A stretch of DNA of 64,000 bases. Source: Bacteroidia bacterium. GTDB taxonomy: Bacteria; Bacteroidota; Ignavibacteria; UBA10030. The position numbers and the translations under genes were made by a program. The stretch covers positions 337,824 to 401,823 of the forward strand of contig BQML01000002.1 of NCBI GenBank assembly GCA_022180565.1. Reading direction: 5' to 3'. A model generated the notes under the pieces. That model saw only the letters and a program-made list of their open reading frames with translations, did no database searches and was not told where the DNA came from. Position 1 is the stretch's first letter; each line of letters opens with the position of its first letter. This document shows positions 31,263 through 37,417 of the stretch, piece by piece.

Positions 31263-32360
31263 TCAGAACTCTGCCTTCACAAAATACTTCCCCGGCAGTT
31301 GACGAACAAGTCCCTTAAATTCCAGGGATAAGAGAGTCACCAGACAATCAGACGTTGAGAGTGCGGTCCTCTCCGAAAGCACGTCAATGTGTACCGGTTC
31401 GTCGCTCAACCTCTGCAGTATCGTGTTCTCGAACAATGTCAACTCGGGCAAGGGCAACGTCCGCCTTTCCTGGCTGCGCGATGAGCCGGCAAGCGCCGGG
31501 AATTCCGCGAGCACGTCGTTCACCGAGTGCGTGAGTTTCGCCCGGCCTTGTTGAATCAGCAGATGCGGACCCATGCTCCGTTTTTCGGTGATCATACCCG
31601 GAACGGCAAAGACTTCACGATTCTGATCAAGCGCCGTCGACGCAGTGATCATCGCCCCGCCATCTTCATCCGACTCCACGACGATCACCCCCAGGGAGAT
31701 TCCGCTGATAAGTCTGTTCCTCCTTGGAAAGTTTGACGCTTCGGGCTGGGTGCCCAGCGGGAACTCCGATATCACGACGCCCTGTCGGGCGATGCGCTGG
31801 AGCAGACGGCGATTTTCGGGAGGATACGGGACGTCGAGTCCCGAACCAATGACGGCGATCGTTCTTCCCCCCGCCCTGAGGGCGGCTTCATGAGCGAAGG
31901 TATCGATTCCTCTCGCCAGACCGCTCACGATGGTGATTCCCACTTCCACGAGCTCCCTGGCCAGATTCTCTGTGACGCGCTGGCCGTAACTGCTCGGCTT
32001 GCGGGTGCCCACAATACCTATGGAATGGCGATCAACTTCGGCAAACGTACCGAGAGCATAGAGGAGGGGAGGAGGGTCGTAGATCCTTTTGAGAAGGGAA
32101 GGATAGGAGTCATCCCAGTAAGAAAGGATGTGTGCGCCGATCCGGTTGACAGCCTTGAGTTGCTCGTCTGCGAAATCCTCGCCGTCGTGATGAGCGATGG
32201 CGCTCGCCAGCTTTCTGTCGATGCCCGGAACTCTGATCAGTTCACGCGGCCCGGCGCGCAACACCGCTCCGGCATCGCCAAAGTGCGTCACCAGAGCGCG
32301 GATCTTGAGCGGACCCAACCGCGGCACGGATGAAAGCCGCAGGAGATCACGAATGTTCAA
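31263..32360 (-). CDS. dprA: DNA-processing protein DprA (Smf)
   Basis: Loads RecA on single-stranded DNA taken up in transformation. The 365-residue protein has an N-terminal helical region (about 1-60, SVPRLGPLKIRALVTHFGD), the Rossmann-like DprA domain (about 75-290) with GTRKPSSYGQRV, SGLARGIDTFAHEAAL, 'GLDVPYPPENRRL' and 'GVIVVESDEDGGAM', and a C-terminal winged-helix (about 310-365). The start is TTG. It is the last gene behind glmM, a TPR gene and eutN-like gene, 24 bases after the latter. No other competence gene is in the window. Confidence 0.95.
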   Translation of the reverse strand: MNIRDLLRLSSVPRLGPLKIRALVTHFGDAGAVLRAGPRELIRVPGIDRKLASAIAHHDGEDFADEQLKAVNRIGAHILSYWDDSYPSLLKRIYDPPPLLYALGTFAEVDRHSIGIVGTRKPSSYGQRVTENLARELVEVGITIVSGLARGIDTFAHEAALRAGGRTIAVIGSGLDVPYPPENRRLLQRIARQGVVISEFPLGTQPEASNFPRRNRLISGISLGVIVVESDEDGGAMITASTALDQNREVFAVPGMITEKRSMGPHLLIQQGRAKLTHSVNDVLAEFPALAGSSRSQERRTLPLPELTLFENTILQRLSDEPVHIDVLSERTALSTSDCLVTLLSLEFKGLVRQLPGKYFVKAEF

Positions 32361-32384
32361 GGATGATTCCCCCCAGGGATGGTT

Positions 32385-32657
32385 TTATTGTTCGATCGAA
32401 ATGTCGTCGACGACTGCTACGATAACGGTGTGTACAGGGGCGTCGGTTCTTCGCAGGATTTGCTGGGCTCCCGCCCCCTCCTGCAGAACCAACACGGTGT
32501 CGCCCACGCCGGCATCGACGCGGTCAATGGCCAGCATTTCGCGTCCCTCGAGTTTCCCGTCCAGCGTCACAGGTGTCACCAGCAGGAGTTTATACTCCTG
32601 AAGCGATGCATGCTTCTGAGTTGCAACAATGGTTCCCGTCACCTTGCACAGAATCAT
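32385..32657 (-). CDS. EutN/CcmL-type microcompartment vertex protein
   Basis: A 90-residue protein matching the EutN/CcmL pentamer family: MILCKVTGTIVATQKHASLQ at the N-terminus, then 'YKLLLVTPV', 'AIDRVDAGVGDTVLVLQEGAGA' region and VHTVIVAVVDDI near the end. Members cap the vertices of bacterial microcompartment shells. No hexameric shell protein (BMC domain) or encapsulated enzyme is seen here, so this is an orphan. It overlaps the TPR gene by ATGA and precedes dprA by 24 bases, in an operon led by glmM. Confidence 0.88.
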   Translation of the reverse strand: MILCKVTGTIVATQKHASLQEYKLLLVTPVTLDGKLEGREMLAIDRVDAGVGDTVLVLQEGAGAQQILRRTDAPVHTVIVAVVDDISIEQ

Positions 32658-33604
32658 CGTCTTTCCCCCCTTCGCGCCACTTCGGCTTCCGCCGCTATGT
32701 ATCCAAACGCCGGCCAGTAACTTCCCTTTAAAATCTTCCGGAAAAGCCGCATTGCTTGCTCGGTCTGTCCGTTGACAAGATACCAGTTGGCCACCCCGTA
32801 CCCCTGTGTGGCAAGGTCAAGCTCACTAGCGCCGGTTTCCTTCAGAAGGGAGTCCGGCGGAATAATCCCTTTGTACATCAATAGCCGCCGATGGTAGCTG
32901 AAGTTCTCAATGATGTTCATTTCCGGACGGATGTTTTCCAGGACCGATTCGGCTTCTCCCGGTCTCCCGGCACGGCGCAGACTCATGTATAGCCAATCGC
33001 TTGCCGCGACGAGCATGTCGTCGTTTGTCGAATACCTCAGGCACTCTCTGTAAGCCCTTGCGGCCTTGTCGAACTCGCCTTTGAGATAGTAAGCCAGGCC
33101 AAGATGATACCAGATGTTCGTTTTCAGCGTGCTCGTTGGAATGTTCTTCTCATTGGGCTGGCCGTCAGGCTCGATGGTGTCTTCAATACCCTCAACGAGC
33201 CGCGAGGCGTGCAGGAGGTCCCGAATTGCCTTGTCGAATTGTCGTAGGGTGATAGAGCGATGGCCCCGGTGGCGATACAGCCGGGCGTCGGTCGGGGCGA
33301 GTTCAATCGCCTGCGAAAACAATTCAATGGCTTCCCGGTACTTCCAGATATACGCGGCCCGGCGCCCAAGCCAGAGGATGTTTTCAACGGCGGTTGGATC
33401 GGCATCGTAAGCCGCCTTTGCCTCAGCGTATTCGGCTTCGAGCTTTGCCTTCTGAGCCCCCAAGTCTTTTCGGTAGAGAGGCTCTCCCAGAAGAGAGAAT
33501 GCCTCCGGTTGAACAAGCGTCCCGACGGAGGGAACGGGCTGCTGACCGACAAGGATACCGATCGAAAAGAAAAGGCCCGTGATCACGCGCTGTCCGCGGG
33601 TCAT
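32654..33604 (-). CDS. Exported TPR-repeat protein
   Basis: A 316-residue protein with a signal peptide (about 1-22) and several tetratricopeptide repeats (about 75-150 and 165-235), e.g. AIELFSQAIELAPTDARLYRH and WYHLGLAYYLKGEFDKAARAY. The last third (about 240-316) continues the helical pattern with YLVNGQTEQAMRLFRKIL. It overlaps glmM upstream and the eutN-like gene downstream by four bases each. Function unknown; a solute-binding or envelope scaffold role is likely. Confidence 0.82.
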   Translation of the reverse strand: MTRGQRVITGLFFSIGILVGQQPVPSVGTLVQPEAFSLLGEPLYRKDLGAQKAKLEAEYAEAKAAYDADPTAVENILWLGRRAAYIWKYREAIELFSQAIELAPTDARLYRHRGHRSITLRQFDKAIRDLLHASRLVEGIEDTIEPDGQPNEKNIPTSTLKTNIWYHLGLAYYLKGEFDKAARAYRECLRYSTNDDMLVAASDWLYMSLRRAGRPGEAESVLENIRPEMNIIENFSYHRRLLMYKGIIPPDSLLKETGASELDLATQGYGVANWYLVNGQTEQAMRLFRKILKGSYWPAFGYIAAEAEVARRGERR

Positions 33605-34968
33605 GTTGCGGCCTCCCGCATGATTTCCTCTGCAAGCGAGCGAGCCTGTGTTTCATCAGGTCCCTCCGAGATAATCCGGATGATCGGTTCGGTGTTGGAA
33701 GGACGAAGATGAACCCAGGAACGCTCGAAATCGATACGAATACCGTCGTCGGTGTTGACGATTCCCTTCCCGGCATATCGCTTCGCAAGCCGGGCAAGGA
33801 GTGACGGCACATCCCGCGAATCCGATTCAATCCGATGCTTTGTCATCACGTATTCCGGAAGGGTTCTCCGCAGTTCGGACAGCGGCCCGCCGAACTCAGC
33901 CAGATGCTGAAGCGTGATCCCTATGCCGACGAGAGCATCCCGGCCCAGGTGCACGGTAGACAAGATCACGCCTCCGCTGCCCTCGCCCCCGATGATTGAT
34001 CCGGCCTCTTTCATTTTTGCCGCTACATTGATTTCGCCGACCGGTGTTCGGATGACTCTGACCCCAAATGGTCCTGCAACGTCTTCAACGGCTCTCGTCG
34101 TGGAGAGATTGACGACCACGGGGGAAAGTGGTTTCTTGTTCTTCCGGGCCTCGTGTTGCAGAACGAATTTCACCGCCTGGACAATGGTGTACTCTTCGCC
34201 GAACGGTTTCCCCTCTTCATCGATAAGAACGAGCCTGTCGCCGTCGGGGTCCACCGCCATGCCCAGATCGGCGCGTTCGCGGCGAACCCTCCGGCGGAGA
34301 GCCGTAAGGTTTTCGGGCAGGGGTTCAGGTGTGTGGGCGAAGACGCCTGAGACGTCGCAGTTCATTTCAAGGACTGTGCAGCCAAAGGCCTTGAGGAGGT
34401 CGGGAATGACCGCCCCCGCGGAGGCGTTGACGCAATCGACCACCACTTTGAAGCGCCTTTTTCGTACGGTTCTGAGATTGATATAGGGTATTTTGAGAAC
34501 CTCCTCCACATGTTTTTGCAGAAACGAATCGTCGGTCCTGTGGCGTCCAAGTTTGTTCCAGGGGACGAATCCGGGAGACCCGCTGCGGAGAATACTCTGG
34601 AGTCGCTCGTGTTGATCCTTATTGAGGAACATACCCGAGTTTGCAAGAAACTTGAGGCCGTTCCATTCGATCGGATTATGGCTTGCCGTGATCGAGATGC
34701 CGCCGGCGCACTTGAGTTGTTCGACGGCAATCTGGATGGTCGGCGTGGGGCAAACCCCGAGAGCAACAACGTCGCATCCTGCGGAGAGGAGCGTCGACGA
34801 GACGATATTGCCGATGGGCTTTCCGGTGACGCGGCCGTCCCGACCGATGACAATTGGCCGGCGGCCGCAGTATTCTGCAAAGGCGGCGGCATATCGGACA
34901 AGGACGTCGGGGGTCAGGCTGGTGCCGATAATGCCGCGGACGCCGGAGATGCTGGAGATGAGGGACAT
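33601..34968 (-). CDS. glmM: Phosphoglucosamine mutase (alpha-D-phosphohexomutase)
   Basis: Converts glucosamine 6-phosphate to glucosamine 1-phosphate for UDP-GlcNAc. The 455-residue protein has ISGVRGIIG at the N-terminus, catalytic serine in TASHNPIEWNGLK (about 98), metal loop VDPDGDRLV (about 240), sugar loop GEGSGGVIL and phosphate loop RPSNTEPIIRI near the C-terminus. A phosphomannomutase/phosphoglucomutase role cannot be excluded from sequence alone. A longer frame upstream overlaps the divergent AMMECR1 gene and lies beyond the promoter, so ATG 34968 is used. It leads the glmM-TPR-eutN-dprA operon. Confidence 0.88.
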   Translation of the reverse strand: MSLISSISGVRGIIGTSLTPDVLVRYAAAFAEYCGRRPIVIGRDGRVTGKPIGNIVSSTLLSAGCDVVALGVCPTPTIQIAVEQLKCAGGISITASHNPIEWNGLKFLANSGMFLNKDQHERLQSILRSGSPGFVPWNKLGRHRTDDSFLQKHVEEVLKIPYINLRTVRKRRFKVVVDCVNASAGAVIPDLLKAFGCTVLEMNCDVSGVFAHTPEPLPENLTALRRRVRRERADLGMAVDPDGDRLVLIDEEGKPFGEEYTIVQAVKFVLQHEARKNKKPLSPVVVNLSTTRAVEDVAGPFGVRVIRTPVGEINVAAKMKEAGSIIGGEGSGGVILSTVHLGRDALVGIGITLQHLAEFGGPLSELRRTLPEYVMTKHRIESDSRDVPSLLARLAKRYAGKGIVNTDDGIRIDFERSWVHLRPSNTEPIIRIISEGPDETQARSLAEEIMREAAT

Positions 34969-35051: not shown

Positions 35052-35074
35052 TCAGCCAACGAGGTGAACGTAGG

Positions 35075-35641
35075 GTGTTTGAAGACGTTGAGAAACGCGA
35101 CCTGCTGAGAATTGCGCGCGCCTCGATCGAGGGCGTGCTGGGCGGCGAGCGGCCGACGATGCCCGATGCGTCGGCGCATTTGCTCGAGAGACGTGGAGTC
35201 TTTGTGACCCTGCGGGTCGGGAAGGAACTGCGGGGTTGTATCGGGTACGTCGAGCCTCGACTCCCGCTCGCGCAAGCCGTGGCGGAAGTGGCATGTAAGG
35301 CGGCCTTTGAAGATCCGAGGTTTGCTCCGCTTACCCCTGAAGAGCTACCGTCGGTGGACATTGAGATCTCAGTGCTTTCGCCGCTGGAGGCAGTACGGGA
35401 CATTGCGGAGATTGAGGTGGGGAGACACGGGCTCATTATCGAAGCCGGAAGGTGCAAAGGGTTGCTTCTGCCGAACGTTCCTGTTGAGTACGGCTGGGAC
35501 CGTGAGGAGTTTTTGAATCATACTGCACTCAAGGCGGGGCTTCCTCCTGAGGCGTGGCGGGACGAACATACGCGCTTGTTCAAGTTTACGACAGAAACGT
35601 TTTCGGAAACGGAACTCTACCAACCGCATCAGCCTCTCTGA
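35075..35641 (+). CDS. AMMECR1-domain protein (AmmeMemoRadiSam system protein A)
   Basis: A 188-residue protein that is one AMMECR1 domain. Family motif LRGCIGYVEPRLPLAQAV (about 55-72) is intact, as are AFEDPRFAPLTPEEL, DIEISVLSPLE and the ending ELYQP. The GTG at 35075 is chosen because GAGGTG stands 8 bases before it. The gene lies directly upstream of a MEMO1 gene, the usual pairing; the third member, a radical SAM enzyme, is not in the window. Biochemical role is unknown. Confidence 0.93.
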   Translation: MFEDVEKRDLLRIARASIEGVLGGERPTMPDASAHLLERRGVFVTLRVGKELRGCIGYVEPRLPLAQAVAEVACKAAFEDPRFAPLTPEELPSVDIEISVLSPLEAVRDIAEIEVGRHGLIIEAGRCKGLLLPNVPVEYGWDREEFLNHTALKAGLPPEAWRDEHTRLFKFTTETFSETELYQPHQPL

Positions 35642-35695
35642 TTCTCTCGCTGGCCATGCATACTCGTTCTCCACATTCATCGCGTGGTGGTCACC

Positions 35696-36520
35696 ATGTC
35701 CGTCCGTGAAGCCGCAGTCGCAGGATTATTCTATCCTGAGCTCAAGAGCATCCTCGAAAAAGAGGTCGATGAATACCTGCTGAGGGCAAAGTCTGTGCGG
35801 ATTGACGGCACAATCCGCGGTCTCCTTTGCCCGCATGCCGGCTTTGCGTACTCGGGAATGACCGCTGCGGCCGGATACAGGTTATTGAAAGGCCGGACAT
35901 ACGATGCCGCGATCATTGTCGGTCCGAGTCACCGGGAGTATTTCGACGGGATTTCGATCCATCCCGGAACTTCGTATAAGACTCCGCTGGGCGAGACCTC
36001 GATCGACGCCGGACTCAGGGCGCTGCTTGCCAAAGCGCATCCATCAATTATCCTCTCTGAGCATGGACATACGATGGAGCACTCGGTCGAAGTACAATTG
36101 CCGTTCCTGCAGAGGGCGCTTGGCCGCACACCGTTTGTGCCTCTGGTCATGGGTGATCAGCGGCGCGAACTGTGCATGGCGCTCGCCGAGGCTCTGAGCA
36201 AGGTTTGTCAGGACCGCAATGTCCTCCTCGTGGCCAGCAGCGATCTGTCGCACTATCATCCGTATGCCGAGGCGGTTGGCCTTGACAAACGCGTTGTAGA
36301 GGATGTGGAGGCGTTTCGACCTGAGGACCTCCTGCGGAAACTCGAGCTCGAGGAGGTCGAGGCCTGCGGTGGAGGCCCGATTGTTTCCGTCATGCTTGCC
36401 GCGCGTGCGCTCGGTGCCGTGCACTGCAAGGCCCTCTTTTACTGCAATTCCGGCGACGTGACGGGTGAAAAGGACGCCGTCGTCGGATATCTGTCGGCGG
36501 CTCTTTTCCAGGATTCCTGA
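35696..36520 (+). CDS. MEMO1 family protein (AmmeMemoRadiSam system protein B)
   Basis: A 274-residue protein related to class III extradiol dioxygenases. VAGLFYP opens it; the metal-site histidines are expected in CPHAGFAYSG (about 45), GPSHREYFDG, EHSVEVQLPFLQ and SSDLSHYHPY; the end is GDVTGEKDAVVGYLSAA. A GTG at 35684 four codons upstream is the alternative start. It follows AMMECR1 by about 55 bases and is followed without gap by the DUF2520 gene. Confidence 0.93.
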   Translation: MSVREAAVAGLFYPELKSILEKEVDEYLLRAKSVRIDGTIRGLLCPHAGFAYSGMTAAAGYRLLKGRTYDAAIIVGPSHREYFDGISIHPGTSYKTPLGETSIDAGLRALLAKAHPSIILSEHGHTMEHSVEVQLPFLQRALGRTPFVPLVMGDQRRELCMALAEALSKVCQDRNVLLVASSDLSHYHPYAEAVGLDKRVVEDVEAFRPEDLLRKLELEEVEACGGGPIVSVMLAARALGAVHCKALFYCNSGDVTGEKDAVVGYLSAALFQDS

Positions 36521-37417
36521 TTGCCCCGCGTTCAACGGCCGCACAACATATCCTTGATCGGAGCAGGCAGGGTTGGATCGACCCTGGCTGTCCTGCTCTC
36601 CCGCAAAGGATACCGCTTCCTCTCCGTCATCAGCCGCAGTCCGTCTTCCGCGCGGTCCCTGGCCCGGAAGCTGCGCGTTCGGATTGCTTCCTCCCGTATC
36701 GAGGACATTCCTGCCGAATCCGATCTTGTGATGGTCGCGGTACCCGATGAATCCATTGAGACTGTTGTCCGTGATCTTGCCCGCGAGGTTCCGCTGAACT
36801 GGCCCCGCGTCACCGTGTTTCATGTTTCGGGAGCCGTAACCCGGGATGCGCTGGCAGATGCGGCGGTACTCGGAGCGCGAACATTCTCGCTTCATCCGAT
36901 CCAACTGTTTCCCCGGAAAAACACTCTGAAAGATCAGATCGCGATCATGAAGGGGATTTGGTACGGGTTCGAAGGGGAACGGCGCGCAGAGCGGACTGCA
37001 AAGCGCCTTGTGCGCGATCTTGGGGGAAAGATCGTGGTCGTTCCGAAACAGGCAAAAATTTTGTATCATGCAGCATGTGTTTTTGCGTCGAACTACCCTG
37101 TGGCCGTTTTGGCCGTGGCGCAGTCGCTGGCACGGCAGGCAGGTCTTTCCGGTTTGGCGCCTCTATCCCCGTTGATCAACGCGGCGGTCGGCTTGGCCTC
37201 TGCAGGAGATCCACGGGAGGCTCTGACGGGGCCGATCGCCAGGGGAAGCGTCGAGACCGTCAGGAGGCAACGACAGGCCCTGGAGGCCCTTGATCCGCGA
37301 GTGGCGAGGGCTTACGCGGCCATTGGATCCCTGGCTCTGGATTTGGCGACGGAAAAAGGGGGGATGGAGAAAGAACGGATTCGAATACTGAGAAATCTCC
37401 TGACTTCAAAACCGTGA
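36521..37417 (+). CDS. Rossmann-like DUF2520 oxidoreductase-like protein
   Basis: A 298-residue protein with an N-terminal NAD(P)-binding fold (ISLIGAGRVGSTLAVLLSRKGY, about 10-31) and a C-terminal helical DUF2520 domain (about 130-290: FSLHPIQLFP, YHAACVFASNYPVAVLAVAQSL, ALTGPIARGSVETV). It resembles ketopantoate-reductase-like proteins, but the substrate is not known. The start is TTG, immediately after the MEMO1 stop. Its stop overlaps the next gene's GTG by four bases. Confidence 0.88.
   Translation: MPRVQRPHNISLIGAGRVGSTLAVLLSRKGYRFLSVISRSPSSARSLARKLRVRIASSRIEDIPAESDLVMVAVPDESIETVVRDLAREVPLNWPRVTVFHVSGAVTRDALADAAVLGARTFSLHPIQLFPRKNTLKDQIAIMKGIWYGFEGERRAERTAKRLVRDLGGKIVVVPKQAKILYHAACVFASNYPVAVLAVAQSLARQAGLSGLAPLSPLINAAVGLASAGDPREALTGPIARGSVETVRRQRQALEALDPRVARAYAAIGSLALDLATEKGGMEKERIRILRNLLTSKP

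What the first reader, a model, noticed from the sequence alone, without database searches (positions are those of the whole stretch)
31263..34968. Orphan microcompartment vertex gene inside a glmM-TPR-dprA operon
Seen: an EutN/CcmL-type gene overlaps an exported TPR gene, with glmM upstream and dprA downstream, in one chain with a single promoter. Known: such proteins normally cap shells built from BMC hexamers. No BMC shell gene or signature enzyme is in 64 kb. Inference: either a satellite locus serving a shell encoded elsewhere, or a EutN-fold protein reused for another task.
Basis: partly seen in the sequence, partly recalled or inferred. Interest (0 to 1): 0.5.

Follow-up and report, generated by a model that had tools for sequence, protein, structure and literature searches.

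The report
Vertex gene of a scattered microcompartment
The lone shell-corner gene is one piece of a protein organelle whose genes are scattered around this bacterium's genome, and comparison with relatives suggests that the organelle breaks down deoxyribose, the sugar of DNA.

Summary
The EutN/CcmL gene is real (window 32385-32657, minus strand), has the vertex-protein fold, and sits in a glmM-TPR-eutN-dprA chain. It is not an orphan: the same genome has two more EutN genes (between deoB-like and rpoD-like genes) and two BMC-domain genes on another contig. Among 61 genomes, EutN and BMC genes co-occur almost perfectly. In genomes without the dispersed shell, glmM and dprA are neighbours with no EutN between them, which argues against a glmM- or dprA-related job.

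This fits the published "FRAG" microcompartments, reported to have no obvious aldehyde-producing enzyme. I propose one for this lineage. Deoxyribose-phosphate aldolase (DeoC) carries an encapsulation-peptide-like, Cys-rich N-terminal extension in 33 of 33 dispersed-shell genomes with a strong DeoC match. The complete extension is in 0 of 11 shell-less genomes, though one (G057) keeps a peptide-like helix. An acetaldehyde dehydrogenase with conserved C-terminal peptides co-occurs with the shell.

Best reading: a scattered DNA-sugar metabolosome, this gene encoding one of its three vertex proteins. Shell membership is close to certain. The deoxyribose function rests on comparison and is untested at the bench; tests of peptide amphipathicity were weak, and no PduL was found.

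The parts
32385..32657 (-). eutN3: EutN/CcmL-family vertex (BMC-P) gene, 90 aa; the finding itself
   Evidence: PF03319 87.1 bits; fold model and PDB matches; same site in 31 of 31 uncut relatives' loci
33601..34968 (-). glmM (phosphoglucosamine mutase); host gene of the chain, also beside dprA where EutN is absent
   Evidence: TIGR03990 502.8 bits
32654..33604 (-). TPR protein; lineage-specific, not part of the conserved set
   Evidence: Pfam TPR families; homologue in 5 of 32 relatives' loci
31263..32360 (-). dprA; host gene of the chain
   Evidence: TIGR00732 261.6 bits
35072..35641 (+). AMMECR1-family gene, divergent from glmM; marks the upstream end of the chain
   Evidence: PF01871 195.5 bits

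Best explanation
The gene encodes one of three vertex proteins of a bacterial microcompartment whose genes are dispersed over the genome (a FRAG-type shell). SHOWN by sequence in G000: EutN3 in the glmM-dprA chain; EutN1 and EutN2 between deoB-like and rpoD-like genes; two BMC-domain genes on contig C7, one with a long C-terminal tail; an aldehyde dehydrogenase of the acetylating acetaldehyde type elsewhere on C2; and DeoC elsewhere on C2. Many relatives add a PduS/RnfC-like protein next to a tandem-BMC gene; no tandem-BMC gene was found in G000. INFERRED: the shell encloses DeoC, through its N-terminal peptide, and the aldehyde dehydrogenase, through its C-terminal peptides. [quoted passage not shown] acetaldehyde is oxidised inside to acetyl-CoA, so that the toxic, volatile intermediate is contained. 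How CoA is recycled without PduL is unexplained; a PTA-type enzyme is only a candidate.
For: Own genome: 2 BMC genes and 3 EutN genes. Co-occurrence: 42 of 61 genomes have EutN and 42 of 61 have BMC, differing only by G012 and G051. Site: 31 of 31 uncut relatives' loci have EutN3 between glmM and dprA. Absence: among 25 shell-less, compact-only or mixed genomes with a dprA hit, 0 have EutN near dprA and 24 have glmM upstream, 19 of these within 181 bases by match ends. DeoC extension: 33 of 33 dispersed genomes with a strong DeoC match, 0 of 11 shell-less ones. Class sample of 197: EutN and extension both 61, EutN only 12, extension only 2, neither 122; EutN and AldDH both 67, EutN only 6, AldDH only 1, neither 123. 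The AldDH's best family is acetylating acetaldehyde dehydrogenase, 610.4 bits, just under its cut-off of 620.1, which suits DeoC's product. A compact locus in Aminicenantes (L305) holds BMC, EutN, AldDH and an RpiB-DeoC fusion beside a nucleoside transporter, a pyrimidine-nucleoside phosphorylase and a cytidine deaminase.
Against: No experiment. Hydrophobic moments of the putative peptides are weak: 1 of 9 beat shuffles at 0.05 and the mean DeoC profile gave 0.09. No PduL in dispersed genomes. No tandem-BMC gene in G000. G057, shell-less, keeps a peptide-like DeoC N-terminus. 12 of 73 EutN genomes of the class sample lack a detected extension; 2 of these (G009, G049) have compact clusters, the rest were not examined. 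Related genomes are not independent; two of the 11 shell-less genomes are only 55% and 62% complete (G022, G044). RpiB was not tested in dispersed genomes.
Confidence: 0.8

Rival explanations
1. EutN3 belongs to the dispersed shell, but the shell does not process deoxyribose. The DeoC extension serves something else (metal binding by its cysteines, regulation, oligomerisation), and the aldehyde dehydrogenase handles acetaldehyde from another source such as ethanol.
For: The extension contains conserved cysteines besides the peptide-like helix. Peptide amphipathicity was weak. Sutter et al. 2021 found no obvious signature enzyme for FRAG types (passages). 8 of 197 class genomes have EutN and the AldDH without a detected extension.
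Against: Complete extension in 33 of 33 dispersed and 0 of 11 shell-less genomes; within genus g8 the two shell-bearing genomes have it and the four shell-less ones do not. The AldDH is of the acetaldehyde type. deoB-like genes adjoin the EutN pair in 19 of 26 non-compact loci.
Confidence: 0.13
2. The EutN fold is reused here for a task tied to glmM or dprA (cell-wall precursor or DNA uptake), independent of any shell.
For: The position beside dprA is kept over a wide clade: 54 of 80 named loci have dprA downstream.
Against: EutN presence tracks BMC presence; glmM and dprA stand together without EutN in genomes lacking the dispersed shell; in G036 the EutN genes lie instead in a cluster with PduL and AldDH genes.
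Confidence: 0.03
3. The scattered genes are decaying remnants of a lost compact locus and no working compartment is made.
For: No main locus; no PduL; BMC-T not found in some members, G000 included.
Against: The main BMC gene is 88-100% identical to that of G000 in 32 loci from 29 relatives, while EutN3 is 54-74% identical; the same sites are kept over six families of the order; the 33 glmM-dprA EutN3 frames matched show no internal stop.
Confidence: 0.04

Closest known systems
FRAG1-7 microcompartments (Sutter et al. 2021, PMC8217296; passages seen)
   Same: Shell genes in several genomic places, a BMC-P triplet, an aldehyde dehydrogenase remote from shell genes, and Ignavibacteriae among the reported hosts
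   Different: No signature enzyme was reported for FRAG; here DeoC with a peptide-like extension is proposed.
SPU (sugar phosphate utilisation) microcompartments (PMC4207490, PMC8217296; passages seen)
   Same: DeoC-type aldolase plus aldehyde dehydrogenase and related shell proteins; same proposed chemistry (products of DNA degradation)
   Different: SPU genes sit in one locus, with RpiB; here they are dispersed, and RpiB was not tested
HO microcompartment (Haliangium ochraceum; PMC8217296 passages)
   Same: BMC-P triplet; some genomes reported to have a remote pfam01791 aldolase with an EP-like N-terminal extension
   Different: Other phylum, with a main locus; the match of DeoC extension to shell presence tested here was not part of the passages seen
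PVM-like compact clusters in the same order (genus g9, G049)
   Same: EutN and BMC genes, an aldehyde dehydrogenase and a PduS-like protein
   Different: One cluster with PduL, acetate-kinase-like and, in g9, class II aldolase-like genes (names by eye); no EutN near dprA

Membership tests
EutN/CcmL vertex protein (BMC-P) | Family profile and fold | tested here: met
   PF03319 87.1 bits; model and PDB matches
EutN/CcmL vertex protein (BMC-P) | Pentamer capping a shell vertex | not testable with these tools
   Only a monomer was modelled
FRAG-type microcompartment | Shell genes in several genomic places without a main locus | tested here: met
   Three shell places in G000, none holding both EutN and BMC genes
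FRAG-type microcompartment | Three BMC-P paralogues (triplet) | tested here: met
   3 EutN genes, falling in three groups of a quick tree
FRAG-type microcompartment | Assignment by the published shell-protein HMMs | not testable with these tools
SPU microcompartment | DeoC-type aldolase as probable cargo | tested here: met
   TIGR00126 290 bits with an N-terminal extension; packaging itself untested
SPU microcompartment | RpiB (pfam02502) with the aldolase | not tested
SPU microcompartment | Genes in one locus | tested here: not met
   Five places in G000
Encapsulation-peptide cargo | Terminal amphipathic helix of about 18 residues joined by a linker | tested here: inconclusive
   Terminal conserved peptides seen; hydrophobic moments weak
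PVM-like microcompartment | PduL phosphotransacylase, present in the compact clusters of this order | tested here: not met
   No PF06130 match in G000; 6 of 61 genomes, all compact or mixed

The most novel reading that the evidence does not exclude
The scattered microcompartment of this clade is a constitutive DNA-scavenging organelle, built from single genes kept in housekeeping operons, several beside DNA-handling genes (dprA, ruvB-like, a DNA-glycosylase-like gene, rpoD-like). DNA taken up or turned over would be stripped to deoxyribose-5-phosphate and burned inside the shell. The Cys-rich DeoC extension would be a new cargo module, perhaps a metal or Fe-S site that couples DeoC to the PduS-like flavoprotein.
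Probability: 0.12. Interest if true: 0.75.

Novelty: new variant of a known kind. Interest (0 to 1): 0.6.

Why it matters
Sutter et al. 2021 list FRAG types among microcompartments with an aldehyde dehydrogenase but no obvious aldehyde-producing enzyme, and leave their function open (passages). Here a natural experiment, shell present or absent among relatives, points to DeoC and an acetaldehyde dehydrogenase as cargo. If right, the open question becomes testable with two tagged proteins, and surveys that look only near shell genes will have missed cargo encoded far away. It would also be a whole organelle kept without an operon, with one vertex gene held beside dprA over a large clade.

Tried and rejected
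Orphan or repurposed EutN: rejected after the own-genome searches and the glmM-dprA site test.

Satellite of a compact shell: the compact clusters (genus g9 genomes and G049) occur in genomes without EutN near dprA, so they are a separate system. G036 is mixed: its three EutN genes lie with PduL, an AldDH and one BMC gene, while a BMC pair, a tandem BMC, DeoC and a second AldDH lie elsewhere.

PduL as part of the dispersed system: not found. PTA family: in 59 of 61 genomes whatever the shell, so uninformative. TPR protein as partner: 5 of 32 loci. Single promoter: nothing on this strand. BMC-H2's C-terminal tail: no Pfam match beyond the BMC domain.

Weak or partial: hydrophobic moments. My two strict patterns for the AldDH tails both matched in 10 of 19 sequences recovered from 30 loci; by eye all 19 have related peptides. 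The careful vertex tree did not finish; the quick one has few columns and joins of long branches. The gene caller in my scripts is crude (longest little-overlapping frames). The names ruvB, DNA glycosylase, deoB, rpoD, acetate kinase and class II aldolase are by eye or by tblastn between loci, not profile-checked. In the scripts the EutN1 (and PdxJ) query was translated in a wrong frame, so EutN genes there were found with the EutN2 and EutN3 queries; the absence of EutN in shell-less genomes also rests on the PF03319 search.

Rows dropped or sorted by hand: the sorting of 61 genomes into 37 dispersed (G036 mixed, G012 and G051 with one family missing), 6 compact-only and 18 shell-less is mine. 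G012, G014 and G018 have no DeoC match; weaker DeoC copies (G035, G050, G053, G056, G059 and the compact genomes other than G009) were set aside; G015 and G029 have none. G023 and G020 were missed by my pattern and read by eye. G214 (weak, E 0.0071) and G098 (44% identical AldDH) were kept in the class counts. Of 12 AldDH loci fetched, 10 entered the alignment.
Full report
What is there. The EutN/CcmL gene (window 32385-32657, minus strand, 90 aa) is a confident family member (PF03319, 87.1 bits, cut-off 25). Its nearest solved relatives by sequence are CcmL, EutN and shell vertex proteins. A model built with 42 sequences has mean pLDDT 87.4; its best PDB matches are CcmL and EutN chains, the first twenty with query TM-scores of 0.83-0.88. 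The gene sits in a chain glmM-TPR-eutN-dprA; the first two junctions are ATGA overlaps, and 24 bases separate eutN from the first listed dprA start.

It is not alone. The window is C2:337824-401823 of a 3.0 Mb draft genome, G000. That genome has two BMC-domain genes on C7, of 97 aa and of 184 aa with a C-terminal tail, and two further EutN genes at C2:68.0-68.6 kb, between a deoB-like and an rpoD-like gene (both named from sequence). The three EutN genes fall into three groups of a quick tree, and each group has relatives in microcompartment loci elsewhere, other phyla included. That tree has few columns, and its careful search did not finish.

Shell and gene come and go together. Of 61 genomes (own and relatives), 42 have EutN and 42 have BMC genes; the two sets differ only by G012 and G051. 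By hand I sorted the 43 shell-bearing genomes into 37 with a dispersed set (G036 being mixed) and 6 with a compact cluster only; 18 have neither family. In 31 of 31 uncut relatives' loci EutN3 lies between glmM and dprA on one strand, in some with other genes between; a 32nd is cut at a contig end. Of 25 genomes that are shell-less, compact-only or mixed and that gave a dprA hit, none has EutN near dprA and 24 have glmM upstream. In 19 of these the gap between matches is at most 181 bases; in the other five it is 218 to about 1,400 bases. So glmM and dprA do not need the gene.

Spread. In a named genome collection, the best 80 relatives of EutN3 were kept (111 were found). Of these 80, 54 have dprA downstream, 38 have glmM and 37 have both. 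They are mostly records named Ignavibacteria, Ignavibacteriales, Bacteroidetes or the like, with Kryptonia among those that have both partners.

Where the cargo may be. In relatives, a PduS/RnfC-like protein precedes the tandem-BMC gene; no tandem-BMC match was found in G000. PduL is confined to 6 of 61 genomes, all compact or mixed. Searching with a compact-locus AldDH found a second, longer AldDH (frames mostly 528-591 aa) in 36 of the 37 dispersed genomes, all but the 81% complete G014, and a weaker match in 1 of 18 shell-less genomes, G035. The best family of G000's copy is acetylating acetaldehyde dehydrogenase (TIGR02518, 610.4 bits, just below the cut-off of 620.1). It ends in a variable linker with two conserved peptides (10 sequences). 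Near it lie ruvB-like and DNA-glycosylase-like genes (by eye). With G000's copy as query over a class sample, 68 of 197 genomes match at E <= 1e-60, and 67 of the 68 have EutN.

The aldehyde source. DeoC (TIGR00126) is in 54 of 61 genomes, with or without shell, but its N-terminus differs. In dispersed-shell genomes it starts with a short helix-like peptide, then a Cys-rich stretch, about 60 residues in all. All 33 dispersed genomes with a strong match have it: 32 by pattern and G023 by eye; G036 has a variant. None of 11 shell-less genomes with a strong match has the complete extension; two of the 11 (G022, G044) are only 55% and 62% complete. Exceptions are telling. G057, shell-less, keeps a peptide-like helix without the cysteines. 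In genus g8, G008 and G030 (shell) have the extension and G020, G024, G026 and G028 (no shell) do not; G024 keeps only its later part. In the class sample the 60-residue stretch alone finds 63 of 197 genomes, in frames mostly of 288-347 aa. Against EutN the table is 61 both, 12 EutN only, 2 extension only (G180, 78% complete; G214, a weak match) and 122 neither. The Fisher p of 6e-36 takes no account of shared ancestry.

Mechanism. DeoC yields acetaldehyde and glyceraldehyde-3-phosphate, and the co-occurring dehydrogenase is of the class that turns acetaldehyde into acetyl-CoA. A deoB-like gene, whose product would feed DeoC (established biochemistry), adjoins the EutN pair in 19 of 26 non-compact relatives' loci with 1.5 kb flanks, and an rpoD-like gene in 25 of 26. 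In locus L305 (Aminicenantes) a nucleoside transporter, an RpiB-DeoC fusion, BMC, EutN, AldDH and tandem-BMC genes stand together, followed on the other strand by a pyrimidine-nucleoside phosphorylase and a cytidine deaminase. This is what a gathered version of the dispersed set would look like. Encapsulation is inferred from the position and co-occurrence of the peptides. Published encapsulation peptides are terminal amphipathic helices of typically 18 residues joined by a disordered linker (PMC12339742, passages). My own amphipathicity tests were weak.

Relation to what is known. Sutter et al. 2021 (PMC8217296, passages) describe FRAG types: shell genes in as many as six places, a BMC-P triplet, found in Ignavibacteriae and related phyla, with an AldDh but no obvious signature enzyme, function open. 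They also describe SPU loci with DeoC and RpiB, proposed to use products of DNA degradation, and remote EP-bearing aldolases in some HO genomes. SPU was first noted in Axen et al. 2014 (PMC4207490, passages). The scattered shell is therefore known, and this gene is a member by its features. The proposal of DeoC and this dehydrogenase as its cargo in this clade appears new: searches of an open-access library (listings), and passages of three further papers, showed no paper assigning a function to FRAG. Subscription journals and supplements were not searched.

Verdict. The wider result is a testable assignment for a microcompartment class whose function was left open.

Noticed in passing
L006:13346-13900 (own genome, C7); L126:5441-5998: The second BMC gene carries a C-terminal tail of about 100 residues ending in a conserved helix-loop-helix-like stretch; Pfam shows only the BMC domain. 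It recalls (from memory) nucleic-acid-binding tails such as that of EutK.
   Followed up: partly
L006:13955-14248 and relatives' loci: The main BMC gene is 88-100% identical to that of G000 in 32 loci from 29 relatives, far above its neighbours in the set.
   Followed up: partly
DeoC N-termini, e.g. L182:1468-2328 (-): Conserved cysteines follow the peptide-like helix; a possible metal or Fe-S site of unknown role.
   Followed up: no
L305:2590-4005 (Aminicenantes): RpiB-DeoC fusion inside a shell locus with nucleoside genes; its linker holds a peptide-like stretch and a short Cys motif.
   Followed up: partly
L284:4699-5960 (Myxococcales): Two EutN genes next to a class II aldolase-like gene, like the HO satellite locus described in PMC8217296.
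   Followed up: no
L100:8366-13693 (G036): A mixed genome: three EutN genes clustered with PduL, an AldDH, one BMC gene and an acetate-kinase-like gene, while other shell genes are dispersed.
   Followed up: partly
window 35072-37417: AMMECR1- and Memo-family genes lie side by side, divergent from glmM.
   Followed up: no
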